64,000 nucleotides of DNA from Brucella pseudintermedia. GTDB lineage: Bacteria; Pseudomonadota; Alphaproteobacteria; Rhizobiales; Rhizobiaceae. A program made the translations under genes and the position numbers. The stretch covers positions 157,189 to 221,188 of the forward strand of contig NZ_WBWE01000008.1 of assembly GCF_008932435.1 (NCBI RefSeq), in the 5' to 3' direction. This document shows, one piece after another, positions 26,497 to 46,506 of the stretch. Under the pieces are notes generated by a model. It made no database searches, had not been told where the DNA came from, and saw only the letters and a program-made list of their open reading frames with translations. Numbering within the stretch: the stretch's first letter is position 1; the number at the start of each line of letters is the position of its first letter.

Positions 26497-27624
26497 CTAT
26501 CGAAGCTTGCGCAGCAATCGCCATTTCAACGGACGTAACTTCTGATAAAGCGCTGTGGCGCGTATCCGTTCCAGCGACCGGTCGAGAGCCAATGATATAC
26601 TTCCCCGAAGAGTGACCGCCCTGACAAGGTCACGCATGGGGACAGTCCGGTCACGCAAGCCCTGCTTCCACGGCTCGTCGCCATAGCCCAGATCGAAACA
26701 TTGGTATCCCTCCGCTTTGAGCGTGTGCAGAAGATGCAGAATTATCACCTTGCCGGGGGAGAATTTACTCCATTCGCCGTCTTCAAAAGTCGTAATCATC
26801 GCGCAGTAATGGCCATTGCGGACGACACTCCACATCGTGGCCAATATCGTCTCACCCACCGCAAGCGCGGAAAAATGGAGAGCATCGCGTCGGGCGAGCC
26901 GTTCGGTCGCCTCTTCAAAAAAGCGTCGCTTTTCGGGATGGACATCGAAACCGGGAACCATTGTTTCCTCGAAACGGCGCTGTTTCTGGCGCAACATGGT
27001 TTCGAGCAGAGCCCGCCGCTGGGGTTCCGTCTGTGGCACGTAAAAACGGAAACCGTCCAGTTTTTGAAGTGCCCGGTCCCGCTTTTTGACAGTCTTTATG
27101 CCCTGTATGGACTGCTCGATCTCTTCCAGCCGACGTGTCAGGGAAATTGCGTGCGTTGACGCTTCGGAGAACAGATTTGTCAACGGCCACAAAGGATTTG
27201 CGATGCCTTCGACGTGCTGCGGCATCTTGCAAAGCGCAATCACGTCGTGAGGGGGAACCGCCGCCAAGACAGCTTCAAAAAGGCGCGCGGCAGCCTCCTG
27301 CGAAAGCTGCGCTGCGGCCGGAAATATAATGGGACCGTTATAATCGCTAACACCGTCGTCGATAAATGAAAGCACGCACGTTCCATAGGTCAGCTTGATG
27401 AAAAGCGGCAGAAAAAGAAGAGGGGTTCCATTGCTCTGGCGAACTTCGGTCAGGCACAGTTCCGTGCCGGATTTCTGTCCATAGCTCGCTTCCCATGCTC
27501 GGATGAAGGATTTGGACTGGAAAACAAAAAATGCGCTGCCGGTCTTGTCGTCGGCATCCGGCCAGTCACTGGATAACCGTTCCGTATTCTTGTAGACTTG
27601 GATGTCAAAATCATTGGTGAGCAT
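26497..27624 (-). CDS. GNAT/FemAB-like acyltransferase of the CelD/BcsL type
   Basis: Predicted cytoplasmic acyltransferase of 375 residues. The middle and C-terminal part (about residues 160-335) shows the acetyltransferase fold found in polysaccharide loci: TVKKRDRALQKLDGFRF, MLRQKQRRFEE and the late beta-alpha segment FSPGKVIILHLLHTLKAEGY followed by FDLGYGDEPWK. A positively charged tail ends the protein. It probably acylates a sugar or sugar-lipid intermediate. Divergent from the glycosyltransferase at 27772, so the 147-bp gap likely holds two promoters of the exopolysaccharide locus. Confidence 0.75.
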   Translation of the reverse strand: MLTNDFDIQVYKNTERLSSDWPDADDKTGSAFFVFQSKSFIRAWEASYGQKSGTELCLTEVRQSNGTPLLFLPLFIKLTYGTCVLSFIDDGVSDYNGPIIFPAAAQLSQEAAARLFEAVLAAVPPHDVIALCKMPQHVEGIANPLWPLTNLFSEASTHAISLTRRLEEIEQSIQGIKTVKKRDRALQKLDGFRFYVPQTEPQRRALLETMLRQKQRRFEETMVPGFDVHPEKRRFFEEATERLARRDALHFSALAVGETILATMWSVVRNGHYCAMITTFEDGEWSKFSPGKVIILHLLHTLKAEGYQCFDLGYGDEPWKQGLRDRTVPMRDLVRAVTLRGSISLALDRSLERIRATALYQKLRPLKWRLLRKLR

Positions 27625-27771
27625 AAATCTCTTTCACGGTTTGCGCGTCGAATCTCATTTTCTAGTTGCAAGATTCTAATAGATTTGAAACCAAAGAAAA
27701 TCATGAATAGCGGCTCGGCTGGTGCGAACCGGCAAACTGCTTCGCATGTGCTTTTCACAAATAGGGCAAAG

Positions 27772-28767
27772 ATGTCTGTTTCGATTATCATCAAGACTTT
27801 GAACGAGGAAAAGCGTATCGCCGGAGCCATTGAAAGCGCCTTGAAAGCCTTGCCCGGCGGTAAAGTCGAAGTCATCGTGGCGGATAGTGGATCGACCGAC
27901 CGTACAATCGAGATCGCTCGGGCATATCCGATCAGGATCGTGCAGATCGAGCCGCCCGCTCAGGCCAGTTGCGGGCTGGGTCCACAGCTCGGTTTTCAAT
28001 ATTCGACACAGCCTTTTATCTGCCTGATCGATGGCGATATGATACTCGAGCCGGATTTTCTTCCCGCCGCCCTTGCTTATCTCGACAGCCACCCGGATGT
28101 TGGCGGCGTGACCGGCCATGTCGTGGATCAGATCTTGGAAAGCCTGGAATTTCAGCGCCGTTCAAAGCGGCATTCGCCCGAAGCACGCATAGGCGATATC
28201 GATCGCATGAACGGCGGCGGGCTTTACAGGCGCAGCGCCATCGAGCAGGCCGGTTATTTCTCCGATCGCAATCTGCACGGTCACGAAGAGTTTGATGCCG
28301 GTGTTCGCCTGCGCAGCCATGGATGGAAACTCCATCGTCTGGACCGGCCGTTCGTGCAGCATTTTGGCTATACGATGAATGCCTACAAACTTCTGGTCCG
28401 CCGCTGGAAAAGCAAATACCTGCGCGGCACAGGAGAAGTGTTGCGTGCGGCGATGGGACAACCGCATCAAAAAAACCTGTTCCGCGAACTGCCGGAATTG
28501 CGGCTGTGGGGCGCGGTTTATATCTGGTGGCTGGCCATTATAGCTGCTCTGGTTTTCGTGCCGAGATGGCTTCCCGCAATTGTCGTGGCTGTCATCATTG
28601 CCGCAATTCCGTTCGTCGCAATGTGTATTCGCACGCGCAATATCGAACTTGGCGTCTACGCGGTGGTTGCGTGGATATTTCACGCAGCAGCACTGCCCCT
28701 TGGCTTTTTTCAGCCGCGCCGCAAACCGACCGACTGGATTGAGAGCAAGGTTATAAGGGAGCCCTGA
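27772..28767 (+). CDS. Family-2 glycosyltransferase, exopolysaccharide locus
   Basis: Membrane-associated glycosyltransferase of 331 residues. GT-A motifs: SIIIKTLNEEKRIAGAI, VIVADSGSTDRTIEIA, and the metal-binding DGDM (LIDGDMILEPDF). The acceptor region reads DRMNGGGLYRRSAIEQAGYF and HGHEEFDAGVRLRSHGWKLH with the catalytic acid. Two to three C-terminal membrane segments follow. The frame is open to 27598, but the ATG at 27772 begins exactly at the conserved MSVSIIIKT. The stop overlaps the next start by one base, so it is coupled to the glycosidase gene. Confidence 0.85.
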   Translation: MSVSIIIKTLNEEKRIAGAIESALKALPGGKVEVIVADSGSTDRTIEIARAYPIRIVQIEPPAQASCGLGPQLGFQYSTQPFICLIDGDMILEPDFLPAALAYLDSHPDVGGVTGHVVDQILESLEFQRRSKRHSPEARIGDIDRMNGGGLYRRSAIEQAGYFSDRNLHGHEEFDAGVRLRSHGWKLHRLDRPFVQHFGYTMNAYKLLVRRWKSKYLRGTGEVLRAAMGQPHQKNLFRELPELRLWGAVYIWWLAIIAALVFVPRWLPAIVVAVIIAAIPFVAMCIRTRNIELGVYAVVAWIFHAAALPLGFFQPRRKPTDWIESKVIREP

Positions 28768-30959
28768 TGGACATCCGGCGACTGGTCCTCTCGGCTTGGT
28801 TTATTGGCCTCGCAATGTCTGGTGCCGGTGCCGAAGAATGGCTTCCGGTCAAGGAAAACAATCTCGAAATCTCCGCGGGCAGCCCTCTCGACTTTTCGGG
28901 ATTTCTGGCCAATACGCCAATCGAAGAGAAAAATCGCCTGATCGCAAATGCCGACGGGCATTTCGCCCGCGCTGACAAGCCAAGCGAGGCACTGCGGCTG
29001 CAATGTGCGTCGATTGCCTGGGGACCGCCATCGTCGCGGGCGGTGGATCACGCCTTTATTGATCGATATGTGCGGCAGCTCCGTCTGCACGGTTACAATA
29101 TAGCCCGGTTTCACTTCGTTGATGCCGACCTGATGCTCGGGCAGGCGCGTGATTTCGATTTCCGCCCGGAAGCCCTCGACCGGATGCGCTATCTGATGGC
29201 TGCGCTCAAGCGCGAGGGTATCTACTGGATTATCGACGGACTTACTTCCGAAAGCGGCGCTTTGGGCGGCAAGGACACTGATCGATGGGGACCGGACGGC
29301 AATCTGAAACGCCGGATCTATGTGGACGATGCGGCATTCGATCACTGGCTGCGTTTTCAGAAAGAAGTCTACGCCACGGTCAATCCCTATACGGGACTTG
29401 CACCTTTGCGCGACCCTGCGCTGGCGCTGGTCATTCCGTTCAACGAAAACGGCATCCAGTTCACGAGCTTTGTGCACGAGCCCGGTGACGGGACAATATT
29501 TTGGACCGGCTATCGTCCGGCATTCAATGCTTTTCTGAAAAAGCGCTATGCCGATACCCGTGCCTTGTCACGAGCCTGGGGCGGTTTGGCACCCGGCGAA
29601 AATCTGGAGCAGCAAACTATCCACTTGCCGGAAAGCCGCAGCGGAGGCGGTGGACGGCTCCGGGATTTCCAGGTTTTTCTCGTTGAGAGAGAACGCCTGT
29701 TGACCCAGCGTCTTGAGCAGGCGCTGCGCGTTCTCGGTTATCGTGGCCTCGTCGCACCCTATAACAACTGGTTTACGGTCCAAACGGCTCTTTCGCGACA
29801 GAACCAGCAAGCGGTTGTTGCCAATACCTATCATGACTGGATCGGAACGCTCAGTCCGGGCACCGAAATCAAGGATACGAGTTCGATTGCCGATACCGCG
29901 TCCTACGTCAGTGAAATCGCTGCCGGGCGTTGGCTCGGACGGCCTTTCCTCGCGACAGAATACGAGCACCTGTTCTGGAACCGTTATCGGTACGAAGCTG
30001 GAATAGTGATGCCGGCCTATGCGGCCTTGCAGGGCTGGGATGGTATCTGCCGCCACGGGCAAGGGCCTTTGACGCTTGCATTCGACGAGGCGGCTCCGTT
30101 CCGCCAGCGCATCGTCCCGTATACCTTCGCTGCAGATCCCGTTGCTCGTGCCGGAGAAACACTGGCGTCGCTGCTGTTTCGCAGGGGCGACGTTGAAACG
30201 GCGGCTTTCAATGTACCGTTCATGATGCAGGGAGAGGCGAGCCTTGGTGAATCGCTTGAGTTCCGGGAACCGGCGCGACTGAAGCCATTGGCGCTTGTCG
30301 GTGGGATCGGTCTTGCGACGAAAGGGCAGGCGTGGCCGCATGGCCTGCAGAAATCGGTTGCGGTCGGCTATCGGAGTGCATCACTCGACAATGTATTGCA
30401 GCGCTTGAAGGCCGCAGAACTTCTATCGCACGATAACGTCACTGACCCGTCGCAAGGCTTGTTTGAAAGCGCCACGGGCCAGGTCATGCTCGACCGCAAT
30501 AAACAGCGGATGCAGGTTGTTACGCCCCGGACCGAGGCCATTGCCTTTGCCGAACTGAGAGATCACGTGACCTTGAAGGAATTGTCCCTCGGCAATGCGG
30601 AGGCGAGGGGGCTGTTTGCAGTTTCGGCAATTGACGGAAAAGGGCTGAAGGACAGCGAAAGGCTGCTTGTAATTTTCGCCAGCGATGCGCGGAATTCCGA
30701 CATGCGTTTCCGTGACAAGGCGCAGAAGATTATCGAGGATTGGGGGCGTCTGCCGGTTACTTTGCTGCGCAACCGCGTGGATGTGAATCTGGCAGGAAAC
30801 GCCGTTTCATGGACGCTGTCGCCGATCGGTCTTGACGGCAAGGTCCACGAAAAAATAGCTGCCGGATCTGGACCGATCGCTTTCCGGCTGGATAATGGTG
30901 CAGGCAAAGCGGGGCCGACTACTTTCTTTCTTTTGGAAAGGAAGCTCGCCGTTCAATAG
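28767..30959 (+). CDS. Secreted clan GH-A-like glycoside hydrolase of exopolysaccharide locus
   Basis: Protein of 730 residues with a Sec signal (LVLSAWFIGLAMSGAGA). Residues about 40-440 look like a retaining TIM-barrel glycosidase: the strand-4 acid/base motif is PFNENG with E227 and a candidate strand-7 nucleophile is E398 in LATEYEHLFWNRYRYEAG. Early strands show LHGYNIARFHFVD and GIYWIIDGLTSES. The last ~230 residues look beta-rich. Function is likely trimming or release of the locus's own polysaccharide in the periplasm. A paralogue without signal peptide lies at 44410-46506. Specific GH family not assigned. Confidence 0.72.
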   Translation: MDIRRLVLSAWFIGLAMSGAGAEEWLPVKENNLEISAGSPLDFSGFLANTPIEEKNRLIANADGHFARADKPSEALRLQCASIAWGPPSSRAVDHAFIDRYVRQLRLHGYNIARFHFVDADLMLGQARDFDFRPEALDRMRYLMAALKREGIYWIIDGLTSESGALGGKDTDRWGPDGNLKRRIYVDDAAFDHWLRFQKEVYATVNPYTGLAPLRDPALALVIPFNENGIQFTSFVHEPGDGTIFWTGYRPAFNAFLKKRYADTRALSRAWGGLAPGENLEQQTIHLPESRSGGGGRLRDFQVFLVERERLLTQRLEQALRVLGYRGLVAPYNNWFTVQTALSRQNQQAVVANTYHDWIGTLSPGTEIKDTSSIADTASYVSEIAAGRWLGRPFLATEYEHLFWNRYRYEAGIVMPAYAALQGWDGICRHGQGPLTLAFDEAAPFRQRIVPYTFAADPVARAGETLASLLFRRGDVETAAFNVPFMMQGEASLGESLEFREPARLKPLALVGGIGLATKGQAWPHGLQKSVAVGYRSASLDNVLQRLKAAELLSHDNVTDPSQGLFESATGQVMLDRNKQRMQVVTPRTEAIAFAELRDHVTLKELSLGNAEARGLFAVSAIDGKGLKDSERLLVIFASDARNSDMRFRDKAQKIIEDWGRLPVTLLRNRVDVNLAGNAVSWTLSPIGLDGKVHEKIAAGSGPIAFRLDNGAGKAGPTTFFLLERKLAVQ

Positions 30960-32074
30960 AAATCGGTCGACAACCTGCTCCAGCTTTCGCCAGCAAGTCC
31001 GCCGATAAAGATATCGCCGCGCTGAATTGCATTCAGCATGTCGGCGTTTGCCGTAGCAACGCAGACATTGGCCTTCAGGCGGAAGAACATGATCGACTGC
31101 TGTGAAAGCGCATTAAGATAACGCGGGTCAACCCTTCCTTGTGCCGCGATGTGCCCTTCATCCTGCAGGTGGAGCAGCATCGCATCGACGGCATGTTTTT
31201 CCATTCCGGCTTTCGTGATGATGTTCAGAACTTCTGCGATGCCATTGGGGCGCCTATAGTAACAGAAGAAGCCGCCGGGGCTGCCGCCGCGGTCATTGAT
31301 CGCGCAGAACCGCAAGGCACCGGCAGCATGATTGTCCGACGCCATCTGGAAGAGCCAGCCAATGTCGCTTTCTGTCCAGGCTGGATGCGCCAAATAGCTT
31401 TGCAGATAGCCGGGAACAAGAGATATGGCTTCTTCTTGCGTAATTTCCCTCACATCCGCCGTGGATTTGGCTGCTCTCCTGATCGCGGGAACTGGAAAGA
31501 GCGGGTTGAGCACTTTGCCCACCGAACTGGCTGCCCATCCGCCGAGAACGGGACGCCGTTCGGCAACGTAATTGGCCACATAGCTGGCGGCTTGGAATAC
31601 CCGTGTCCATCCGAGCCCGTGTGTGCCGAGTGTTATCCCGCCGATCGCTTCGGAGTGCTTGAGACTTACGGGGGCCGCACTGTCGGTGAAGTTGAGGATC
31701 TTTTCGCTCGGACGCAAGGTGAGTGTCAGTTCGGCGGCACCACGTGGCGACATTTCCGGCTTCATCATGAAAGCGCAAAGCAAGCGTCCCATGACCGATT
31801 GGCCGTTAACCCTGTAAGGAATGGGCAGGACCGAGATCGCACTGTCAATCTCACCGCGCTCGTTCTCATGGACCACGCTGCCAATCGCCGGGTCGTAATA
31901 AGGGTTCTCAAAAAAGAACTTTTGAAAATACTGATCAAAAGTCTCGCGGCACGACTTTGAATGCGGACGAAAAACGCGCTGGAAGAGGGTGCGAATGGCA
32001 GGGATATCATCAATCTTCATTGCGCGAACGCGCCGCGACTTGACGTCGTTTGCCGAGATCGGGATCCCCGCCAT
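30953..32074 (-). CDS. GNAT-like N-acetyltransferase, exopolysaccharide locus
   Basis: Predicted cytoplasmic protein of 373 residues. The N-terminal ~180 residues have a GNAT-like layout: AMKIDDIPAIRTLFQRVF, GSVVHENERGEIDSAISVLP, then VMGRLLCAFMMKPEMSPRG in the place of the acetyl-CoA-binding strand and helix. The rest is unassigned. It starts directly after the flippase stop (TAG-ATG, no gap), so the two are co-expressed and it may modify a lipid-linked repeat unit before flipping. Its 3' end overlaps the convergent glycosidase by 7 bases. Confidence 0.65.
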   Translation of the reverse strand: MAGIPISANDVKSRRVRAMKIDDIPAIRTLFQRVFRPHSKSCRETFDQYFQKFFFENPYYDPAIGSVVHENERGEIDSAISVLPIPYRVNGQSVMGRLLCAFMMKPEMSPRGAAELTLTLRPSEKILNFTDSAAPVSLKHSEAIGGITLGTHGLGWTRVFQAASYVANYVAERRPVLGGWAASSVGKVLNPLFPVPAIRRAAKSTADVREITQEEAISLVPGYLQSYLAHPAWTESDIGWLFQMASDNHAAGALRFCAINDRGGSPGGFFCYYRRPNGIAEVLNIITKAGMEKHAVDAMLLHLQDEGHIAAQGRVDPRYLNALSQQSIMFFRLKANVCVATANADMLNAIQRGDIFIGGLAGESWSRLSTDFY

Positions 32075-33469
32075 CTAAGCCCCCACTGTTGAAACCGCTT
32101 TCTTTACTTCTGCGTCACGACTCCGGCGAACGAGGTAGATAACGCATCCCCATGATGCCAGCACAATACTGATTTCAATTGCGTAAATGGCGGCGAAAGT
32201 TCCTGTGATCGGCGCGTACCAGGTTGCCAGCGCCAGGAAGGGGGCGCCGAGAATATTGCCTGTGTTGAGGACGGCGGTGCGATAGCTGTGCTGGCTGGCT
32301 GCACCCAGCAGATCCACGGCTATCGACCAAAGGGCGACAAACACGGTGGTCCAGCAAAGCGTGCGGCAGAAGGAAACCAGCATGTCATACTCGTGGCCAA
32401 ACAGATAAGGCAGATAGGGCGCGATGATGAACACGGCCAGCGAGGTTGATATGCCGATTGCAAATGCGGCACCAAGCAGGCGCATCGTGATCGGCAGGGC
32501 ATGATGGATTCCTTTTGCGCTGGCGCGGGCCAGATGAGGATAAACCAGACGGTTCATCGCTTCGACAGTCAGGGTGCTGCTATCGATGATACGTCGTGTG
32601 ACGCCGTAACTGCCGACGACGCTTGGCGACATCAATGTGCCGAGGAGCAGGAGGTCCGCATTCTGGCGCACTGCCTTGAAGATGAATTGCGAAGCAAACA
32701 TCACGCCGAGCCGTATTTCGTCACGCACGATCGTGTATTGCGGTCGGCCCAGCCTGCGCAGAAACAGGGCGTAAACCACGGCAACCAGGACATGGACACC
32801 AAACTGCCAATAGGCCCATCCGACGACGGTGGAGACGCCGAATAGAAGGCAGGCGGTCGCTGCCGCAATGGTCCGGGCAACGGCAAACCCCACGACAGAG
32901 AGATTGGCGGACAGGAAGTCGGTATGTGCGATATAAATCTGCTCAACCAGCAGGATGAGGCGCACAAGCACAATGTTGGTAACGAGCAGCAGGAAAAGCC
33001 CGAACAGGTTTCCTGCAAATTCAGGAGAATTGTACAGCCAAAACGGTAATATGATCATTCCGGCGGCGACAAGGACAACACCGGTAATCGCAATGAGAAT
33101 GAGATTGTGGCCGAGCATCGCGGGGTAGATCGTGCGGTCCTGCGCTACGCGACGCACGAGGCATTCTGCTCCGCCCAGGCCGCAGATGAAGGTAGCGATG
33201 TTGGTGACAGCCATTATGGTCACGAACAGGCCAAACTCGTGAGAACCGAGATATCGCGCTAGCAGCGCAAATGTTAAAAGCTGGGCGATGTTTGCTGCAA
33301 AGAGGCTGCCGCTTGAAGCTGCGTAGGACAGGAATGTCGACCAATGGCGTTTCAAATTTTTATACCGAATTTTCGGGCCGGTCCGGACCGTAGTGAAGCG
33401 GATTGCTTTTTGTAGAGTTTCTGGCGATGCAGCATATGCTCCGTTTTCTCTTAATCCCGAAAAATACAA
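32075..33469 (-). CDS. Wzx-like polysaccharide flippase
   Basis: Integral membrane protein of 464 residues with 12-14 predicted helices, of the MOP superfamily (PST/Wzx type). Typical stretches are SSGSLFAANIAQLLTFALLA and ARYLGSHEFGLFVTIMAVTN near the N-terminus. It would flip undecaprenyl-linked repeat units to the periplasm for the Wzy-type polymerase encoded at 35179. The start is uncertain: the first possible codon is TTG at 33469 and there are few good alternatives, so the true N-terminus may be up to ~45 residues shorter. Divergent from the GumC-like gene across 178 bp. Confidence 0.82.
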   Translation of the reverse strand: MYFSGLRENGAYAASPETLQKAIRFTTVRTGPKIRYKNLKRHWSTFLSYAASSGSLFAANIAQLLTFALLARYLGSHEFGLFVTIMAVTNIATFICGLGGAECLVRRVAQDRTIYPAMLGHNLILIAITGVVLVAAGMIILPFWLYNSPEFAGNLFGLFLLLVTNIVLVRLILLVEQIYIAHTDFLSANLSVVGFAVARTIAAATACLLFGVSTVVGWAYWQFGVHVLVAVVYALFLRRLGRPQYTIVRDEIRLGVMFASQFIFKAVRQNADLLLLGTLMSPSVVGSYGVTRRIIDSSTLTVEAMNRLVYPHLARASAKGIHHALPITMRLLGAAFAIGISTSLAVFIIAPYLPYLFGHEYDMLVSFCRTLCWTTVFVALWSIAVDLLGAASQHSYRTAVLNTGNILGAPFLALATWYAPITGTFAAIYAIEISIVLASWGCVIYLVRRSRDAEVKKAVSTVGA

Positions 33470-33647
33470 GGTGCCAAGCAGGTCAACGAAAATTTGACAG
33501 AAACTGCAAGACTAAATGGGCCTGATATGCATTTTGGTGACACCATCGCGGATGATTGCCTTTCATTAACCGAATTTTTTAATCTTTAAGTCTAAGGAAG
33601 ACGACGACGGCATTTTTGCGCTGTCGAATGGATTTTAGAGGCAACTA

Positions 33648-35177
33648 ATGTATACGTTGCGTGACCTCGCTTCGAAAGCACGAGTAACGGAGACCGCTGG
33701 TGAAAACCCGGTGCTCGTGGATGAGCGGTTGCGCGCAGTCGGGCGCGAAGCGCATATTGTCCGCGAAGAAGAAAAGATCACGGAAACGGTCGCATCTGCT
33801 CCCAAGGGACTGATGTTGCCTGAAATCGACCTGTTGGATGCGCTCGCCTGGATGCGGGCTCGGTGGATTTTGATAGCAGCGCTCGCGATCATCGGCGGCC
33901 TGGCGGGGCTTGCCTATGGCATGACGGCAAAGCCTCGATATACAGCCTATACGGATTTGCTGGTGCCGCCGTCCGGTCTTCAATTACTGCCGAACGACGT
34001 CTACGCCCAGAGCCTGCAGGCAGATAGCCAGATTCTCGACATTGAAAGCAAGATGCGCGTCCTGACTTCCGGAAACGTACTCCGGCGGGTCGTAACGGAT
34101 TTGAAACTGAATGAAGATGAGGAGTTTGTTCCTCCTCCACCTGCCTTCGATCTCCGGGCCATGCTTGGCCTCGCCAAACCGGCGGGTCCGACGGATGACA
34201 CGCTGACAGCGGTTCGCGCCCTCTCGCAGCGCATTACTGTTACACGGCCTGAACGGTCCTATCTCGTTACCATTGCCGTCTGGACGGATAATCCGGAAAA
34301 ATCGGTAAAGGTGGCGGATTCCCTCGCAAATGCCTTCCAGGAAGAAGTTGCCCAAGCGGATGCCGATGGAGCGGGTCGGGCTGCTGCGGCTCTGTCCGAA
34401 CGTCTCGCCTCCTTGCAGAAGGCGGCGACGGACGCGGAAGAAAAAGTCGCCGCGTTTCGCAGGGCACACGGCTTGCAGACCGCAGGCGGCGAACTTGTCA
34501 GCACCCAATCGATGACGCAGATCAACTCCAAGCTGGTCGACGCCAAGGCGCGAGCTGCCGATGCAAGCACGCGCTACGAGGAACTGACCAGGGACACTGG
34601 AAGCGCCATTAGCCCTGCAAGCACATTGCAGTCGCCTACGATGACAAATTTGCGCGGACAATATGCATCGCTTAAACAGCGCTACGACGCCCTCGCGATG
34701 ACCTATGGCCCACGTTACCCCGAATTGATGAATACGGAGCGGCAGCTTGCCGGTCTGGAGCAGCAAATGGTGCAGGAACGGGCCCGTATCCTGCAATCCG
34801 CGAAGGTCGATCTGGATCAGGCAAACGCCGTTGTCGCGTTGCTTAACGCCCAGGCTGCTTCTGCCCGTTCAGCTGTCGCGCTCGATAATGACGCTCAAGT
34901 CCAGCTTTCGGACCTCGAGCGCGACATGGCCGCGAAAGTGTCGATCTACAACACTTTTCTGACCCGCTCGTCGGAGACGAGCCAGCGCCAGCAACTGGAC
35001 GCCACCAATATCCGGATCATTTCGACGGCCATCCCGCCGATCAGCCGGAGCTGGCCGCCCAAGACGCTGGTGCTCGGCGCCGGGGGCGGCATCGCCGGAA
35101 TGGGCCTTGGTATCGTGCTGGCGCTCGGCCTCGGCTATCTTGGTGCGTGGCGCCGCAACAGGGAAAGCGTCATCTGA
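33648..35177 (+). CDS. Wzc/GumC-type polysaccharide co-polymerase without kinase domain
   Basis: Inner-membrane chain-length and export protein of 509 residues. A cytoplasmic N-terminus is followed by a first membrane helix (about 75-95), a Wzz domain, and long periplasmic coiled coils (about 225-275 and 340-430). The second membrane helix is about 475-500, preceded by the Pro-rich PPISRSWPPK motif. No Walker motifs or tyrosine tail follow, so it is the GumC/ExoP-N form lacking a BY-kinase. Start behind AGAGGCAACTA. The next gene begins one base after its stop. Confidence 0.85.
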   Translation: MYTLRDLASKARVTETAGENPVLVDERLRAVGREAHIVREEEKITETVASAPKGLMLPEIDLLDALAWMRARWILIAALAIIGGLAGLAYGMTAKPRYTAYTDLLVPPSGLQLLPNDVYAQSLQADSQILDIESKMRVLTSGNVLRRVVTDLKLNEDEEFVPPPPAFDLRAMLGLAKPAGPTDDTLTAVRALSQRITVTRPERSYLVTIAVWTDNPEKSVKVADSLANAFQEEVAQADADGAGRAAAALSERLASLQKAATDAEEKVAAFRRAHGLQTAGGELVSTQSMTQINSKLVDAKARAADASTRYEELTRDTGSAISPASTLQSPTMTNLRGQYASLKQRYDALAMTYGPRYPELMNTERQLAGLEQQMVQERARILQSAKVDLDQANAVVALLNAQAASARSAVALDNDAQVQLSDLERDMAAKVSIYNTFLTRSSETSQRQQLDATNIRIISTAIPPISRSWPPKTLVLGAGGGIAGMGLGIVLALGLGYLGAWRRNRESVI

Positions 35178-35178
35178 C

Positions 35179-36507
35179 TTGGCTGAGCTATCGGTCCATT
35201 CCCGTGAGGAAATTCAGCCCCGAGTGTCGTCATCTGTCGGAGCTGGCCTTTTTCTGTGCATGTTCCTGTTTATGTGGATAGGTACCAGTCCCTATCCCGA
35301 TACTGGTGCCGTTACCGGCATTACAGCCAAAGCAGCCGATTCCAGTTCGTTCAATCAGCTCGTCACCCTCTTCCTGACGGGCAGCTTTCTGCTGTACGGG
35401 CTGAACAGCTCGATGCGCAGTGCCATCATGCAACCGCGCATTCTGATGGGGCTGGTATTCTTCTGGTTGTTCCTGACGGCCTTGCTGTCAGCTCATCCTA
35501 TGATCGCCAGCAAGAAAGTCGTGTTGTCTGTCCTGACCGCGCTGAACGCGAGCATCTTTCTTCTGTTGCCGCAATCAGAACGCCAGATGACGCGGTTGCT
35601 GGCGATTGGCTCACTAATAACACTGGCATTTGCCTATTTCGGCGTAATTTTTATGCCGCAACGCGCGATTCATCAGGCTACTGACATCATTGAGCCTATG
35701 CTCGCCGGTGCTTGGCGCGGTCACTATCCGCACAAGAATGCCGCCGCCGCCTCTCTTGTGCTGATGAGTTTTTTTGGGCTTTACATTCGCAAACGCGGTT
35801 TGCCGAAAACCGGTCTTCTAATTGTCGCCCTTTGCGTTTATTTCGTGCTGCATACAGGCGGCAAGACATCGACGGCCATGTTGCCCTTTATCGTGCTGAT
35901 GTCGCTCGTATTCGTGCGGTGGAAATGGACGCGTGTTTTCATTGCGATTGGCGGAATCGCGGCCTTTAATATTATCGCCGTCGGTGCCGCTGTATTCGAT
36001 CCATTGCGCGAGCTTGTACAAAGTTTGGGAGTTGACGCCAGCTTCACCAATCGCTCAGATATCTGGAAACTTGCATTCGCGGCGATCTCGGCCAAGCCGA
36101 TTTTCGGCTACGGACTGGACTCGTTCTGGAAGACGCCTGAAATGGTCTATGCAGGCGGCGGCGGTGCAAGCTGGGCTGTCGCCGCCTTCAATGCGCATAA
36201 TTCATTTCTGGATATGATGATCAATGCCGGCGTGATCGGTCTGGCCTTGACACTTTTCTGGATAATGATTTTGCCGCTTCGATATATTAGGGAAGCGGAA
36301 AGAACAGATAATGACCCTATATTAACGCTGCTTTACATTCGCCTTTGGCTTTACGGATTATATATGTCTTGTATGGAAAGTACGTTCTTTCAGAACGGTG
36401 GGGCACTATGGTTCTGTATCATGGTTGCTGTTTTCGGATTGCGCTTGCAGGCCAAGGCAAGGCTTGAAACAGCTTTGGGGAACTTGGGCAATGGCGGAAA
36501 TGGATAG
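35179..36507 (+). CDS. Wzy/O-antigen ligase-family polymerase
   Basis: Polytopic membrane protein with about ten helices, 442 residues from a TTG at 35179. The family motif with conserved His-Lys-Asn is present (GAWRGHYPHKNAAAA), as is the later A-H-N-S-F motif in AFNAHNSFLDMMINAGVIGL. Most likely the Wzy-type polymerase of this exopolysaccharide. The start is weakly fixed: the TTG lies one base after the previous stop; a GTG at 35223 and ATGs at 35260 and later are alternatives. The 3' end overlaps the deacetylase gene by 17 bases. Confidence 0.78.
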   Translation: MAELSVHSREEIQPRVSSSVGAGLFLCMFLFMWIGTSPYPDTGAVTGITAKAADSSSFNQLVTLFLTGSFLLYGLNSSMRSAIMQPRILMGLVFFWLFLTALLSAHPMIASKKVVLSVLTALNASIFLLLPQSERQMTRLLAIGSLITLAFAYFGVIFMPQRAIHQATDIIEPMLAGAWRGHYPHKNAAAASLVLMSFFGLYIRKRGLPKTGLLIVALCVYFVLHTGGKTSTAMLPFIVLMSLVFVRWKWTRVFIAIGGIAAFNIIAVGAAVFDPLRELVQSLGVDASFTNRSDIWKLAFAAISAKPIFGYGLDSFWKTPEMVYAGGGGASWAVAAFNAHNSFLDMMINAGVIGLALTLFWIMILPLRYIREAERTDNDPILTLLYIRLWLYGLYMSCMESTFFQNGGALWFCIMVAVFGLRLQAKARLETALGNLGNGGNG

Positions 36508-37288
36508 TCTCGAGAGGGCGCGCAGACGTCTGGAATGGTACGCCATTCGGTTGAACGACAGCATCAGTCGCCGGCTTCCCTTGCGCCCGTTTTGTTTGCC
36601 AGCGAACGAACGGATCATTACTTTTACGTTTGATGATGTACCTGATACGGCGGAAAGCGCCGGAGCTGCGATCCTTGACAAGTACGGCGTCCACGGCACC
36701 TTTTATATTGCTGGCAACATGGTCGGCACGAAAGAACGTGAGAGGAATCTGATTACGCAGGAAGGTTGCCGGAAGCTGGTTGCACGCGGACATGAGCTGG
36801 GTTGCCATACCTATAACCACCTCAAGATTCCTTACTGCGGCGCCGGGGAAATAACGGCTGACCTTGATCGCAACACGGCCTATCTCGATGAGTTCGAGCC
36901 CGATCGCGTCCTTCCACGCAATTTCGCTTATCCTTATTGCGCGTCTTCCATGATGACACGGCAGCTTTTTGCCGATCGTTTTGCAACCTGTCGCGGCGGC
37001 GGCAATCGCATCAATCGCGGTATGATTGATCTTGCCTTTTTGCAGGCAGTGGAAATAAGACAGCCAGACGACGGGGCTGCGCGCCAGACCCGCTGGATCG
37101 ATGATCTTAGTGCCAATCCTGGCTGGCTCGTCTTTTATACGCATGATATCAGCGATACGCCGACTGAATTCGGGTGCAGGCCGGAGACCTTTGAACGCCT
37201 CGTATCCCATGCGGCGAAGAGCGGAGCGGCTGTTCTTTCCGTCCGCGAGGCGCTGGCGCGCCTTGGCGTACAACGAGGTGCTGCTTGA
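36491..37288 (+). CDS. NodB-type polysaccharide deacetylase
   Basis: Carbohydrate esterase family 4-like protein, 265 residues. Motif 1 is FTFDDVPDT with D48-D49, and motif 2 is GCHTYNHL with H106 and H110. Together D49, H106 and H110 form the metal site. Motif 3 appears as RNFAYPYC and the late His motif as LVFYTHDISDTP. Removes N- or O-acetyl groups from the glycan or a precursor. No signal peptide is seen, which suggests a cytoplasmic substrate or an unusual route. The ATG at 36491 lies inside the polymerase gene; 36500 is an alternative. Confidence 0.82.
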   Translation: MAEMDSLERARRRLEWYAIRLNDSISRRLPLRPFCLPANERIITFTFDDVPDTAESAGAAILDKYGVHGTFYIAGNMVGTKERERNLITQEGCRKLVARGHELGCHTYNHLKIPYCGAGEITADLDRNTAYLDEFEPDRVLPRNFAYPYCASSMMTRQLFADRFATCRGGGNRINRGMIDLAFLQAVEIRQPDDGAARQTRWIDDLSANPGWLVFYTHDISDTPTEFGCRPETFERLVSHAAKSGAAVLSVREALARLGVQRGAA

Positions 37289-38529
37289 CGCATGTAAATG
37301 ACAGGGAATATCGCCTGCTGGCGATCAACAATTACTTTTATCGGCGCGGTGGCGCCGAAACAGTTTTTCTCGATCACATCAAACTCTTTTCCGAAATCGG
37401 CTGGCAAACGGCACCCTTTGCCATGCAGCATCCGGACAATTTTCCTTCGGATTGGTCTTCCTATTTCGTGTCCGAAATAGAGTATGGACGGGAAAGCAGC
37501 CCGCTTACCAAAGTCGTGCAGGCGGGCAAGATCATCTATTCATGGGAGGCGCGAGACCGGATCAAGGCGCTGATCGAACAATTTCGCCCCAATGTCGCGC
37601 ATGCACATAATATCTATCATCATCTGTCGCCATCGATTTTTCCCGTTCTGAAAGCCGCTGGTATTCCGACAGTCATGACGGCCCACGACCTGAAACTGGC
37701 GTGTCCGGCCTATAAGATGCTCTCACACAACCAGATCTGCGAGCGCTGCAAGGGCGGGCGCATCTATAATGTGGCCCTCCACAAATGCATCAAGGATTCC
37801 ACGGCGTTGAGCGGTCTGGTGCTCGTTGAGACGGCAATTCATCGCATGCTGGGCCTCTACCGCAACACGCTCGACCGTATCGTCGTGCCGAGCCGCTTTT
37901 ATATCGCAAAGCTCGCCGTATGGGGCTGGCCGGAAGAAAAGCTGGTCTATATTCCCAACTTCGCCCACACGGACAATCTGAAACCCTATGCGGATGAGGG
38001 CGATTATTTCGCTTATGTCGGACGGCTGGCGCCGGAAAAGGGGATCGGTACGCTCATTCGCGCCGCGGCTCTTGCCGGACAGAAACTGGTCATTGCTGGC
38101 ACGGGACCGGAGGAACAATCACTGAAGGCGCTTGCGACCGAGACGGGTGGCGATGTCACCTTTGCAGGTTATGTCTCGGGCGAAAGACTGCATCGGCTGA
38201 TCGGTGAGGCGAAAGCGCTTGTTCTGCCGTCTGAATGGTATGAGAACGCCCCCATCAGTATTCTGGAGGCTTATGCACTTGGGGTACCGGTGATCGGCGC
38301 GGACATTGGCGGAATTCCCGAAATGATTATCGAAGGCGAGACCGGGATGGTTTCGCGTACGGGCGATATTGACGATCTCGCCCGCGTTTTGGGCGCTTTT
38401 GCGCGATTGACCGCACAGGCACGGCGCAAGATGGGAGAGGCAGGCCGCCTCTGGGCGGGTAATGAATTCTCGCCACAGGCATACAGAAACCGCACGCTGG
38501 AACTCTATTCCCAGTTGGGAGCACTTTGA
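37285..38529 (+). CDS. Family-4 glycosyltransferase with Cys cluster
   Basis: GT-B glycosyltransferase of 414 residues using a nucleotide sugar. N-terminal NYFYRRGGAETVFLDHIKLF and HAHNIYHHLSP, and C-terminal VGRLAPEKGIGTLIRAA, LPSEWYENAPISILEAYALG with the E-x7-E motif. Between residues about 140 and 175 lies a four-Cys pattern (CPAYKMLSHNQICERCKGG...HKC) seen in one branch of GT4 proteins and able to bind metal. The start is TTG overlapping the previous stop (TTGA) behind GAGGTG. The next gene overlaps by one base. Confidence 0.87.
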   Translation: MTHVNDREYRLLAINNYFYRRGGAETVFLDHIKLFSEIGWQTAPFAMQHPDNFPSDWSSYFVSEIEYGRESSPLTKVVQAGKIIYSWEARDRIKALIEQFRPNVAHAHNIYHHLSPSIFPVLKAAGIPTVMTAHDLKLACPAYKMLSHNQICERCKGGRIYNVALHKCIKDSTALSGLVLVETAIHRMLGLYRNTLDRIVVPSRFYIAKLAVWGWPEEKLVYIPNFAHTDNLKPYADEGDYFAYVGRLAPEKGIGTLIRAAALAGQKLVIAGTGPEEQSLKALATETGGDVTFAGYVSGERLHRLIGEAKALVLPSEWYENAPISILEAYALGVPVIGADIGGIPEMIIEGETGMVSRTGDIDDLARVLGAFARLTAQARRKMGEAGRLWAGNEFSPQAYRNRTLELYSQLGAL

Positions 38530-39668
38530 TGGTTCGAAACGACAAGCGGCCTCGCGTCATGATGCTGGGACTTCGCGGCGTTCCGAATGTGCAGGGAGGC
38601 GTGGAAAAGCATGTCGAAGAGCTCGCCCGGCTGTATGTGACGAAAGGCTGGGATGTCGAGGTCGTCGGACGCCGTCCTTATCTTGAAAAGAAGCAGCCTT
38701 ATGTCTGGGAGGGTGTCCAGGTGACGCCAAGCTGGGCGCCGACCTCCATGAAGTTCGAGGCAATTGTGCACACGGTGTTGGGCGTGCTGAGAGCCGGTTT
38801 CAGCCGTCCTGATATCTTGCACATTCACGCAATCGGTCCGGCTCTTGCCGTTCCGCTGGCACGCCTTTTCGGACTGCGTACGGTCGTGACGCATCACGGT
38901 TTTGATTATAATCGCCAGAAGTGGGGACGGCTTGCGCGCGCAATGCTGAAGCTTGGCGAATGGTGCGGCATGCGCTTTGCAAATGCGCGCATCGCGGTGT
39001 CCAACGATATCGCTAAAACCATGCAGCAGCATTATCACGTGCCGATCACCTTTATCCCCAATGGCGTCACGCTTCGCCCGGCCTGCACAGATACGACGTG
39101 GTTGGAAAAGCACGGCCTTGCTCCGAAACGCTACATCGCGCTTGTGGCGCGGATCGTGCCGGAAAAACGTCAGCTTGACCTCATCGAGGCCTTCGCGAAG
39201 CTTTCCGATCCTTCTCTCAAGCTGGCCCTGATCGGTTCGGCGGAATATACCGCTGAATATGCCGCAGCCGTCCGTAAGAGGGCTTTGGCTGTACCCGGTG
39301 TCGTGCTGACGGGCGCGCTTCAGGGGGACGAACTCTCGGCCTTGTTCAGTCAGGCGGCATTATTCGTGTTGCCTTCCAGCCATGAGGGCATGCCGATCGC
39401 GCTTCTCGAAGCGATGGGATACGGCTTGAATGTGCTTGCAAGCGATATCACTGCAAATGTGGAAGTCGGGCTTTCGAAGGACAGCTACTTTTCACTTGGC
39501 GATGTGGATGCATTGAAGGATGCCTTGCGGCAAAAAGTCGATAAGCCTCTAACCAGCGAGCAGTCGCAGCAATTGATCGACTGGATCGCACGGGATTATA
39601 GCTGGAGCGGGATCGCAGACCGCACGCTGATGGTCTATGAGGAAGGGAGTAGGGGAGTAGGGGAGTAA
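38529..39668 (+). CDS. Family-4 glycosyltransferase, last gene of exopolysaccharide locus
   Basis: GT-B glycosyltransferase of 379 residues. N-terminal LGLRGVPNVQGGVEKHVEEL, acceptor-side THHGFDYNRQKWGRLAR, and donor site LVARIVPEKRQLDLIEAF and LPSSHEGMPIALLEAMGYGL. The ATG at 38529 overlaps the previous TGA and has GGGAG 8 bases upstream. The last codons run into an array of 8-bp repeats (39645-39676), and the stop codon lies within the third unit, so changes in repeat number would change the C-terminal residues. Confidence 0.87.
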   Translation: MVRNDKRPRVMMLGLRGVPNVQGGVEKHVEELARLYVTKGWDVEVVGRRPYLEKKQPYVWEGVQVTPSWAPTSMKFEAIVHTVLGVLRAGFSRPDILHIHAIGPALAVPLARLFGLRTVVTHHGFDYNRQKWGRLARAMLKLGEWCGMRFANARIAVSNDIAKTMQQHYHVPITFIPNGVTLRPACTDTTWLEKHGLAPKRYIALVARIVPEKRQLDLIEAFAKLSDPSLKLALIGSAEYTAEYAAAVRKRALAVPGVVLTGALQGDELSALFSQAALFVLPSSHEGMPIALLEAMGYGLNVLASDITANVEVGLSKDSYFSLGDVDALKDALRQKVDKPLTSEQSQQLIDWIARDYSWSGIADRTLMVYEEGSRGVGE

Positions 39669-44409: not shown

Positions 44410-46506
44410 ATGCCTGACCTTTGGTTACCGGTTACTCAGCAAAATCTCGAGATTGCGGCTGGCAGTCCGCTCGATTTTTCGACATTTCTATTAAATCCGG
44501 CCATTACCGAGGAGCGACGACTCATCGTCAATCCGGACGGTCACATTGCCTTGCAGAGCAATCCGGCCGTTCCATATCGGCTGCTGTGCGGAGCCATCAG
44601 CAGCATTCCCGACAATGCGACAGCGGACAAGATGGCTGTCCAGTTGCGTCGCCATGGCTATAATTGCGTACGATTTCATTTTCTCGACATTGCCTTGATG
44701 GAGGGGCAGCTTCAGGATTTCGACTACCGGCAGGATATTCTTGATCGGTTTCGCTACTACATGGCTGCATTGAAGCAGAACGGCATCTACTGGATCGTGG
44801 ATGGTCTCACATCCAATGCCGGTGCGTTGGGCGGTGTAGCGGACCGCTGGGGAACGGAAGGCAGGCTGAAACTCAAGACGCATGTTGAAAATGCGGCTTT
44901 CGGGCACTGGCTGCGCTTTCAAGTCGATATATTCGGGACGGTCAATCCCTACACCGGGCTTGTGCCTTTCGAAGATCCGGCGATGGCGGTTGTCGTGCCG
45001 TTCAACGAAAATGGACTGTCGTTCAATTCGTGGGTTTATGCCAACGGCGACCTCCAGGCGTTGCCGGAATTGAAGCGGCTGTTCAATGCTTGGCTGAAGG
45101 AGCAATATGGTACCACAGCTGCCTTGCAGGCTGCTTGGGGCGGTGAGTTGCTGGTGAGCGAGCAAATTGAAAACGCCGCTGTCATGCCACCTGCCGACCG
45201 CTATGTCGCGTCCAGACGGCTACGCGACTTTACACGTCTTTGCGTGTCGGTTGAAACCGAGACGGCAAAGAAAATGAGCGACTGCATTCGTGCGATGGGC
45301 TTCAAGGGCATCATCGCACCATATAACAACGGATATGGTATCCAGACCATCCTGACCCGCCGCACTCAACAGGCCGTGGCGATGAATACCTATCATGATC
45401 CCAACGATAATATTACAGGGCCGATATTCCAGACCAGTTCGTTTGACGGTGCGGTGGCCTATGTGCGGGATGCGGCTGCGACACGTCTGGTGGGCAAGCC
45501 ATTCGTCTTGACAGAATACGATCATGTTTTCTGGAACAGGCATCGCTATGAGGCGGGGCTTGCAATGCCGGCTTATGCCTCCCTGCAAGACTGGGATATT
45601 CTGTGCCGCCACAGCAACGGAGCGCTTATCCTTGGTTATGGCGGCAGCGATTTTAACGAACAGTATATCCGTCCGTACAGAACGGCGTTAGATCCTGTTG
45701 CCCGTGCCGGTGAAACCTTGTCGGCGCTGCTGTTCCGGCGTGGAGACGTAGCGAAGGCGCTCCATCAGGTGGTGGCGCAGATACAGGATGTCGGAAATCT
45801 TGTCGGACTGGATATGCAGGAACCGGATGCGGTGACGATCATGTCACTGATGTCGCGTTTCGCACAAGGCGATGCCCCGCTCCCGTCAGACGCTGTGCCG
45901 GTCGGCTCTCCTCGCCAGATTGGAACCCGTGCGGATGCTGTCACATTCCTGCGCAGCAATGGAGTTCTGGCTGCAACAAATCCAAGCGATGCGGCGTCGG
46001 GGATATATGTCAGCGATACCGGAGAGATCAGGCTTGATAGCGCGGCAAAACAGATGCGGGTCGTCACGCAGCATACGGAAGCACTGGCATTCTCATCGAT
46101 CACCCAGCCGGTGCAACTCGGGCAGCTTTGGGTCGGTTCGGCATCCGGTGCGGGTATGCTGGCGGTTTCCTCGCTTGATGGCCAGTCGGTAGCGGACAGC
46201 AGTAAGCTATTGCTGATCTTCACCACGGATGCACGCAATACCGACATGGTCTTCAGCGATAGCGAAGAAAAGACCGTCAGCAGCTTTGGAACCTTGCCGG
46301 TGCAGATCAAAGTTGGGCATGTCTGGTTCAAGATGCCGATCAACACGGCTTGGCGCATATCCCCGGTCGGACTGGATGGCGTGGTGCAGCCTCCGGCCAT
46401 TACGGGTAACGGATCGGATGGACTGAATGTCGAGCTTTGGAACAATGTTTCTGTTCTGCCGAACCCGCCCGGACCAACGACTTATTTTCTGATCGAACGC
46501 CTTTAA
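44410..46506 (+). CDS. Clan GH-A-like glycoside hydrolase paralogue without signal peptide
   Basis: Protein of 698 residues closely related along its whole length to the secreted glycosidase at 28767-30959: shared LEI(S/A)AGSPLDFS, GIYWI(I/V)DGLTS, TVNPYTGL, PFNENG and AYASLQ/AYAALQ-WD segments. Candidate catalytic residues are E200 (PFNENG) and E369 (LTEYDHVFWNRHRYEAG). Unlike its paralogue it starts directly at the mature-type sequence (MPDLWLPVTQQN); the upstream frame closes at 44344 with no other start, so no signal peptide is encoded. Start has GTGGAG upstream. Cytoplasmic or non-classically exported; substrate unknown. Confidence 0.72.
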   Translation: MPDLWLPVTQQNLEIAAGSPLDFSTFLLNPAITEERRLIVNPDGHIALQSNPAVPYRLLCGAISSIPDNATADKMAVQLRRHGYNCVRFHFLDIALMEGQLQDFDYRQDILDRFRYYMAALKQNGIYWIVDGLTSNAGALGGVADRWGTEGRLKLKTHVENAAFGHWLRFQVDIFGTVNPYTGLVPFEDPAMAVVVPFNENGLSFNSWVYANGDLQALPELKRLFNAWLKEQYGTTAALQAAWGGELLVSEQIENAAVMPPADRYVASRRLRDFTRLCVSVETETAKKMSDCIRAMGFKGIIAPYNNGYGIQTILTRRTQQAVAMNTYHDPNDNITGPIFQTSSFDGAVAYVRDAAATRLVGKPFVLTEYDHVFWNRHRYEAGLAMPAYASLQDWDILCRHSNGALILGYGGSDFNEQYIRPYRTALDPVARAGETLSALLFRRGDVAKALHQVVAQIQDVGNLVGLDMQEPDAVTIMSLMSRFAQGDAPLPSDAVPVGSPRQIGTRADAVTFLRSNGVLAATNPSDAASGIYVSDTGEIRLDSAAKQMRVVTQHTEALAFSSITQPVQLGQLWVGSASGAGMLAVSSLDGQSVADSSKLLLIFTTDARNTDMVFSDSEEKTVSSFGTLPVQIKVGHVWFKMPINTAWRISPVGLDGVVQPPAITGNGSDGLNVELWNNVSVLPNPPGPTTYFLIERL

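What the first reader, a model, noticed from the sequence alone, without database searches (positions are those of the whole stretch)
26497..39668. Candidate undescribed exopolysaccharide system with built-in glycosidase, two acyltransferases and a deacetylase
Seen: eleven tightly packed genes in three divergent units encode a complete Wzx/Wzy-type core (flippase 32075, polymerase 35179, kinase-less co-polymerase 33648), three glycosyltransferases, two GNAT/FemAB-like proteins, a NodB-type deacetylase without signal peptide and a secreted clan GH-A-like hydrolase translationally coupled to a GT2. Known: Wzy-dependent loci normally add a priming phosphoglycosyltransferase and an outer-membrane Wza/GumB; neither is here. 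Inference: the locus makes a modified exopolysaccharide trimmed by its own enzyme and borrows priming and outer-membrane export parts from elsewhere. I do not recognise this gene order from any named pathway.
Basis: partly seen in the sequence, partly recalled or inferred. Interest (0 to 1): 0.72.

Follow-up and report, generated by a model that had tools for sequence, protein, structure and literature searches.

The report
Split surface-sugar locus sharing unlinked parts
Ten adjacent genes in an Ochrobactrum-type bacterium encode the inner-membrane half of a machine that likely builds a chemically modified, probably adhesive surface sugar polymer, while the starter and exit parts it is predicted to need are encoded elsewhere in the genome; nearly the same gene set also sits in other genera, including the root-nodule laboratory model Sinorhizobium meliloti, where its role could be tested.

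Summary
All ten frames are open and dN/dS is low. It is not private to this organism: nine of the ten genes sit together on Sinorhizobium meliloti pSymB, and all 20 neighbourhoods I opened in other genera of the family hold the cluster. The locus habitually lacks a priming transferase and Wza. In this genome the only PF02397 transferase is an UppE-type enzyme on contig C3 beside an UppC-type Wza; one of the 20 relatives has an UppE-type gene inside the cluster. A sister module on C40 (Wzz, Wzx-like, WecG, Wzy) lacks the same two parts. Best reading (0.5): an accessory holdfast/UPP-type module that borrows UppE and UppC. In the genus the locus looks ancestral, lost at least twice; its wzy is broken in several relatives. 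A second GH paralogue lies 13 kb downstream, only in locus-bearing genomes. My searches of the held library found no paper that assigns a product. New variant of a known kind; primer, exit port, adhesion and GH substrate are untested.

The parts
26497..27624 (-). GNATa: Acetyltransf_6 (CelD/BcsL-type) putative acyltransferase, 375 aa
   Evidence: PF13480 E 2.4e-27; distant paralogue of the GNAT in the C3 upp-like cluster, 20% id, E 7e-12; present in 6 of 20 opened non-genus loci
27763..28767 (+). GT2 glycosyltransferase, ~334 aa (ORF opens at 27598; start inferred from relatives)
   Evidence: PF00535 E 4.5e-20; 58% id to S. meliloti pSymB gene
28767..30959 (+). GH-A-fold protein, 730 aa, N-terminal signal peptide by eye (about residues 1-22), candidate catalytic E227 and E398
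30953..32074 (-). GNATb: tandem-GNAT putative acyltransferase, 373 aa
32075..33469 (-). Wzx-type flippase (start uncertain)
   Evidence: PF01943 E 2.6e-13; 51% id to S. meliloti
33648..35177 (+). Wzz/GNVR polysaccharide co-polymerase without kinase domain, 509 aa
   Evidence: PF02706, PF13807; closest paralogue in six own-genome stretches compared is the C40 Wzz, 29%, E 2e-53
35179..36507 (+). Wzy-type polymerase, 442 aa
   Evidence: PF04932 E 3.8e-15; closest paralogue in the same comparison is the C40 Wzy, 32% over 343 aa
36500..37288 (+). HfsH-like polysaccharide deacetylase, no signal peptide by eye (ORF opens at 36398; in-frame ATG at 36500)
   Evidence: PF01522 E 4.2e-19; best NCBIfam model HfsH NF050820 E 5e-51, 173.8 bits, cut-off 400; TFDD and HTYNH motifs
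37285..38529 (+). GT4a glycosyltransferase, 414 aa, one of the best conserved members
   Evidence: PF00534 E 6e-34; orthologues in 48 of 394 family genomes, own genome included
38526..39668 (+). GT4b glycosyltransferase, 380 aa
   Evidence: PF13439 E 1.4e-24; 58% id to S. meliloti
44410..46506 (+). GH2: second GH-A-type paralogue, 698 aa, outside the locus
   Evidence: 46% id to the locus GH; in 10 of 35 genus genomes, all of which carry the phoR-gcrA locus

Best explanation
The ten genes at 26497-39668 encode, by protein family, the inner-membrane half of a Wzx/Wzy-dependent polysaccharide pathway, which likely builds a second holdfast/UPP-type surface polymer primed by the unlinked UppE-type glucose-1-phosphate transferase and exported through the unlinked UppC-type Wza. 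Shown: gene content, the single PF02397 gene in the genome, two Poly_export genes elsewhere, conservation, low dN/dS, and a sister module (C40) that lacks the same two parts. Inferred: UppE would make Und-PP-Glc; the GT4 and GT2 enzymes would extend it; the HfsH-like deacetylase and the two acyltransferase-fold proteins would exchange N-acetyl for other groups on the lipid-linked unit; Wzx would flip it, Wzy with the kinase-less co-polymerase would polymerise it, and the exported GH-A-fold enzyme would clip or edit chains in the periplasm or outside. I commit to an accessory adhesin-like module rather than a slime or capsule because its deacetylase is nearest to HfsH, and because module, primer and port show the split organisation reported for UPP.
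For: Family assignments. Only one PF02397 gene in the genome; it passes the Und-P glucose phosphotransferase model (482 bits, cut-off 410.75), with HfsE third in the list though below its cut-off (339 of 750). Poly_export genes only on C3 and C1; the C1 region has its own PF00953 primer, flippase and Wza. An UppE-type hit is missing in 19 of 20 opened non-genus neighbourhoods and an UppC hit in 20 of 20. The exception, L084, has an UppE-type gene (57% id, PF02397 + PF13727) beside the co-polymerase gene, and that genome has two such genes. Deacetylase nearest to HfsH. Sister module on C40 with the genome's only PF03808/WecG gene and the closest Wzz and Wzy paralogues. The only two of 35 genus genomes without a UppE match, G022 and G026, form a pair that also lacks the locus. 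Literature: WecG genes of B. ovis, R. leguminosarum and P. inhibens restore holdfast in a Caulobacter hfsJ mutant, and PHPT genes of the whole panel an hfsE pssY pssZ mutant (PMC11340318 section 11); UPP parts are encoded separately from the core upp cluster (PMC12727192 passages).
Against: UppE is near universal in the family (354 of 394; 47 of 48 locus-bearing genomes against 307 of 346 others, matched by eye), so co-occurrence hardly discriminates. In 15 of the 17 genus genomes without the locus UppE is present, in two of them with a stop inside, so UppE does not need this locus. The WecG of the conserved holdfast-like route is on C40, not here. The HfsH model's cut-off is not reached (173.8 against 400). 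Three PF00953 transferases also exist. L084, the one locus with an UppE-type gene, lacks Wzx and GNATb in the stretch opened, so it is an altered module. Nothing here shows polar location or adhesion. The names UppE and UppC rest on content, not on comparison with Agrobacterium sequences.
Confidence: 0.5

Rival explanations
1. An ordinary Wzx/Wzy exopolysaccharide (matrix, slime or loose capsule) that uses UppE for priming but is neither polar nor an adhesin.
For: Core genes alone do not specify an adhesin; HfsH cut-off not reached; the WecG of the holdfast-like route is elsewhere.
Against: The nearest deacetylase model by far is HfsH (173.8 bits; next NodB 33), and the module lacks its own exporter, as split UPP systems do.
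Confidence: 0.27
2. A polymer primed by one of the PF00953 (WecA/MraY-type) transferases and exported through the C1 Wza, hence unrelated to UPP.
For: Three PF00953 genes and a C1 Wza exist.
Against: The C1 region looks self-contained, and the one opened relative with a primer inside the locus has an UppE-type one.
Confidence: 0.13
3. Not a separate polymer: the module tunes another polysaccharide, its co-polymerase acting on a different Wzy system. In S. meliloti, SMb21506, which I recall as the co-polymerase of this cluster (no call confirmed it), is reported by title to affect succinoglycan.
For: Title of Jofre and Becker 2009, seen only in reference lists; wzy is broken or absent in several relatives that keep much of the rest.
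Against: Flippase, polymerase and three glycosyltransferases are kept together here and in 16 of 20 opened non-genus loci, with low dN/dS here.
Confidence: 0.07
4. A decaying relic: the lineage is losing the pathway and the copy in this genome is already unused.
For: Locus lost at least twice in the genus; wzy broken in 5 of 17 locus-bearing relatives, two of them poor assemblies.
Against: All ten frames open here; dN/dS 0.056-0.222 against two relatives with intact copies.
Confidence: 0.03

Closest known systems
Sinorhizobium meliloti pSymB cluster near minCDE (NC_003078.1 about 1422865-1438124; CP140948.1 294189-308803)
   Same: Nine of ten genes: Wzx, GNATb, GumC/Wzz, Wzy, deacetylase, GT4a, GT4b, GT2, GH, at 36-65% identity, these nine on one strand. 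Product not assigned in any paper my searches showed.
   Different: No GNATa; a second, more distant GNATb-type gene (26% id) and a methyltransferase on the other strand, a dihydrodipicolinate synthase-like and a VanZ-like gene added; order of blocks rearranged; on a megaplasmid.
Agrobacterium unipolar polysaccharide (UPP), core uppABCDEF plus unlinked parts
   Same: Split organisation; initiating transferase UppE and Wza UppC away from flippase and polymerase (PMC4018554 and PMC12727192 passages); a C3 cluster of similar content exists here.
   Different: This locus is not the core; no direct sequence comparison with Agrobacterium was made; the dual-UPP paper (Onyeziri 2022) was not held.
Caulobacter holdfast (hfsEFGHCBAD, HfsJ, HfsK, HfsL)
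   Same: Wzy pathway with the deacetylase HfsH, a GNAT-superfamily acyltransferase (HfsK) and a kinase-less co-polymerase (HfsA).
   Different: No HfsE-, HfsD- or HfsJ-type gene in the locus and no BY-kinase-type gene by Pfam; carries a GH-A-fold and a tandem-GNAT protein; HfsH cut-off not met; HfsK relation not tested.
Hydrolase-bearing EPS loci (recalled: PslG, BcsZ, PelA; read: promonan prmN, prmQ)
   Same: Glycoside hydrolase encoded within an exopolysaccharide cluster (promonan).
   Different: This GH has no Pfam family in the query; of 58 aligned rows 21 hit GH5 and 6 GH42 models, weakly.

Membership tests
Wzx/Wzy-dependent pathway | Flippase, polymerase, co-polymerase and glycosyltransferases encoded together | tested here: met
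Wzx/Wzy-dependent pathway | Priming phosphoglycosyltransferase and Wza/OPX available in the cell | tested here: met
   In the genome, not in the locus:
uppABCDEF core cluster | UppE primer and UppC Wza inside the cluster | tested here: not met
   Both lie on C3; the window locus is not the core
UPP/holdfast-type adhesin | Polar, lectin-binding, adhesive product | not testable with these tools
   Needs microscopy
UPP/holdfast-type adhesin | WecG/HfsJ-type second glycosyltransferase in the module | tested here: not met
   The genome's only PF03808 gene is on C40
HfsH equivalog (NF050820) | Score above the curated cut-off of 400 bits | tested here: not met
   173.8 bits, E 5e-51, profile 18-249 of 249: a relative, not an equivalog
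HfsK family | Sequence relation to Caulobacter HfsK and c-di-GMP binding | not tested
   No HfsK sequence at hand; only the shared GNAT class
Bipartite PCP-2 with BY pseudokinase (HfsAB, EpsV/EcpK) | Co-polymerase without kinase domain | tested here: met
   Wzz and GNVR only, 509 aa
Bipartite PCP-2 with BY pseudokinase (HfsAB, EpsV/EcpK) | Stand-alone pseudokinase partner | not tested
   None in the locus by Pfam; genome not searched for one
Glycoside hydrolase clan GH-A | TIM barrel with Asn-Glu after strand 4 and Glu on strand 7 | tested here: met
   barrel strand numbers assigned by inspection and recalled clan knowledge
GH5 or GH42 | Match to the family model | tested here: inconclusive
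   Query no Pfam hit; of 58 aligned rows 21 hit PF00150 and 6 PF02449 weakly

The most novel reading that the evidence does not exclude
One UppE/UppC chassis feeds interchangeable plug-in Wzx/Wzy cassettes (C40 and this locus), each carrying its own flippase, co-polymerase and polymerase but no primer and no exit port, so that a cell makes two chemically distinct polar glycans through one start and one gate; the cassette studied here adds on-board editing (deacetylase, two acyltransferases, GH-A enzyme), and where wzy is lost the rest persists to graft single repeat units rather than chains.
Probability: 0.2. Interest if true: 0.66.

Novelty: new variant of a known kind. Interest (0 to 1): 0.42.

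Why it matters
If right, the locus is an unassigned part of the alphaproteobacterial adhesin repertoire, present in Ochrobactrum-type bacteria and in the model symbiont S. meliloti, and it turns an open question (which flippase and polymerase go with which priming enzyme in split UPP systems) into a short list of gene deletions in a laboratory strain. The conserved GH-A-fold protein, itself without a Pfam hit, is a candidate enzyme for cutting the polymer and so a probe of its chemistry.

Tried and rejected
Missing half of UPP with this flippase as the only one: dropped. UppE is present in 15 of the 17 genus genomes without the locus, and the C40 module with WecG, a Wzx-like protein and Wzy is the better partner for the core.

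Recent insertion between phoR and gcrA: dropped. Two other genera (L078; L079 and L087) hold the locus at the same site, and the tree of PhoR, GcrA and PPK2 rows needs only two changes, read as losses (quick tree, rooted on L078, which is on a long branch; PPK2 missing in 2 of 38 rows).

Phosphate control because phoR is next door: no support; Pho-box-like matches 6 against a shuffle mean of 3.62, 15 of 100 shuffles as high, none between the genes of the locus (pattern recalled).

A maintained short form of Wzy: the remnants carry stops and frame breaks and lack the middle of the protein; I treat them as pseudogenes. dN/dS in the wzy-less pair G018/G019 is 0.059-0.177 for nine genes, but their remnants differ in extent, so loss may be recent and the value may say little.

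UppE co-occurrence as evidence: too common to discriminate. Rfam over 20000-45000 and a tRNA scan of the window: nothing. Literature searches for the product. GNATa against HfsK: no sequence to test with (one search listed no protein named HfsK). GH search over the order at E up to 1e-60: 3 of 249 genomes, own included, although the protein search found 690 relatives; few same-family genomes are among those listed, so I do not read it as rarity.
Full report
What is there. The stretch 26497-39668 holds ten genes, not eleven. In order: GNATa (-), GT2 (+), GH (+), GNATb (-), Wzx (-), Wzz (+), Wzy (+), deacetylase (+), GT4a (+), GT4b (+). They form four strand blocks. Several junctions overlap: GT2/GH share TGATG at 28765-28769, GT4a/GT4b likewise, and the deacetylase has an in-frame ATG at 36500 inside the end of wzy. 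The locus lies between genes that I read by eye as phoR and gcrA (names recalled, no family scan). Of the 14 relatives of the GH gene in the genome collection, 10 are named Ochrobactrum or Brucella, two only 'Rhizobiales bacterium', one Neorhizobium (a MAG) and one Pseudochrobactrum, so the window comes from that group; its species name is not known to me.

Intactness. All ten frames are open. Nei-Gojobori dN/dS of the window copy is 0.058-0.222 against G008 and 0.056-0.132 against G029 over the ten genes, which fits a locus kept by selection. No Rfam match in 20000-45000 and no tRNA in the window.

The deacetylase. Its best NCBIfam model is HfsH, the Caulobacter holdfast deacetylase (173.8 bits, E 5e-51, nearly the whole profile); the next is NodB at 33 bits. 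The curated HfsH cut-off is 400, so it is a relative and not an equivalog. An active-site Asp of HfsH is needed for its role in holdfast (PMC8449245 passages).

The same cluster elsewhere. On S. meliloti pSymB nine of the ten genes (all but GNATa) lie together at 36-65% identity: Wzx, GNAT, GumC, O-antigen-ligase-type Wzy, deacetylase, GT4, GT4, GT2, GH (two records compared). I recall that SMb21506, reported by title to affect succinoglycan (reference lists only), is the co-polymerase of this cluster; no call confirmed it. GT4a orthologues at E up to 1e-115 occur in 48 of 394 family genomes and 14 of 109 genera, own genome and genus included (only the best few candidates per genome were scored). 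Of the 42 such genomes outside the genus I opened 20; all 20 hold the cluster. Members with at least 75% coverage by one frame, of 20: GT2, GT4a, GT4b and deacetylase 20; Wzx 19; Wzz 19; Wzy 17; GNATb 16; GH 15; GNATa 6.

Missing primer and exit port. Neither the locus here nor 19 of the 20 opened loci has an UppE-type hit, and none of the 20 an UppC hit at E up to 1e-8 (a distant Wza could be missed); the annotated S. meliloti stretch of 40 kb lists none either. In the own genome PF02397 occurs once, on C3, in a protein that passes the Und-P glucose phosphotransferase model. Poly_export occurs on C3 and C1. The C3 cluster holds an UppE-type primer, a Wza, a Wzz/AAA-type co-polymerase, a Wzy-type protein, a GT4 and a GNAT, and the genome search for PF01943 flippases has no match on C3. 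This resembles the description of the upp core as an incomplete Wzy cluster without flippase (PMC4018554 passages). The C1 region has its own PF00953 primer and flippase. The exception L084 carries an UppE-type gene (57% id) next to the co-polymerase gene, and its genome has two UppE matches; it lacks Wzx and GNATb in the stretch opened.

A sister module. C40:208001-228000 holds Wzz, a Wzx-like protein (below the PF01943 cut-off), the genome's only PF03808/WecG gene, a GT4, a GT2, Wzy and an oxidoreductase; the genome searches for PF02397, PF00953 and Poly_export have no match on C40. Its Wzz and Wzy are the closest paralogues of the window's among the six own-genome stretches compared (29%, E 2e-53; 32%, E 2e-45). 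[quoted passage not shown] So C40 plus C3 would be the conserved holdfast-like route, and the window locus a second module beside it. That is why I read it as an accessory adhesin-type polymer; this step is inference.

History in the genus. Of 34 other genus genomes, 17 carry the locus between phoR and gcrA and 17 have the two genes 74-281 bp apart. Two other genera have it at the same site. The tree of the flanks needs two changes, most simply two losses: one in a clade of 15, one in a pair. That pair, G022 and G026, is also the only two of 35 genomes without a UppE match at E up to 1e-60 (G022 is 72% complete, G026 99%). This fits dependence, but it is one event.

Recurrent wzy damage. Wzy is truncated in 5 of the 17 locus-bearing genus genomes (L035, L038, L039; L040 and L042 are poor assemblies with other broken frames) and absent or truncated in 3 of the 20 outside loci (L078, which also lacks Wzz; L079; L081, where 9 bp separate the neighbours). 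In L035, L038 and L039 the other nine genes are open; L078 and L079 also lack GH and GNATb, and L081 lacks GH. Intact copies exist in the other 12 of 17. I have no tested explanation; redundancy with another Wzy is the simplest. Other losses in the genus: GH absent in L040 and L043, GNATb absent in L040, L041 and L043, GNATa broken in L036.

Literature. I saw passages of PMC10787603, PMC5362036, PMC4018554, PMC6372794, PMC12727192, PMC8449245 and PMC12004946, single passages of PMC3233446 and PMC4182512 and a few of PMC5748678 (in all three the SMb21506 mention is a reference entry), and of PMC11340318 passages and the whole of section 11. [quoted passage not shown] The dual-UPP paper was not held; I know it by title and by citation in others.

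Verdict. Real, conserved, intact and, as far as my searches of the held library go, unassigned, but of a known kind. The bold part, one start and one gate serving two cassettes, is open to a few deletions in S. meliloti.

Noticed in passing
44410-46506 (+): Second GH-A-type paralogue (46% id to the locus GH), between an hslO-like and a methionine-biosynthesis-like gene (neighbours named by eye); found in 10 of 35 genus genomes, all of which carry the phoR-gcrA locus.
   Followed up: partly
L035, L038, L039, L040, L042, L078, L079, L081: wzy broken or missing in loci that keep much or all of the rest; the middle of the protein is what is gone in the remnants.
   Followed up: partly
L067 (own genome C40:208001-228000): Sister Wzx/Wzy module with the genome's only PF03808/WecG gene, without primer or Wza.
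   Followed up: partly
L044, L045 (genomes G022, G026): The only two of 35 genus genomes without a UppE match also lack the locus and are neighbours in the flank tree.
   Followed up: partly
genomes G004, G021 (UppE match): UppE match contains one TAA stop in each of two same-genus genomes, both without the locus.
   Followed up: no
22321-24201 (+): Large GT2-type protein (626 aa, by eye) upstream of PPK2 and phoR, found in all 34 compared genus loci (33% coverage only in the poor assembly L042); family not scanned.
   Followed up: no
L071 (S. meliloti pSymB, CP140948.1): The homologous cluster lies near minCDE, an EAL-domain protein gene and a two-component pair, a possible c-di-GMP link.
   Followed up: no
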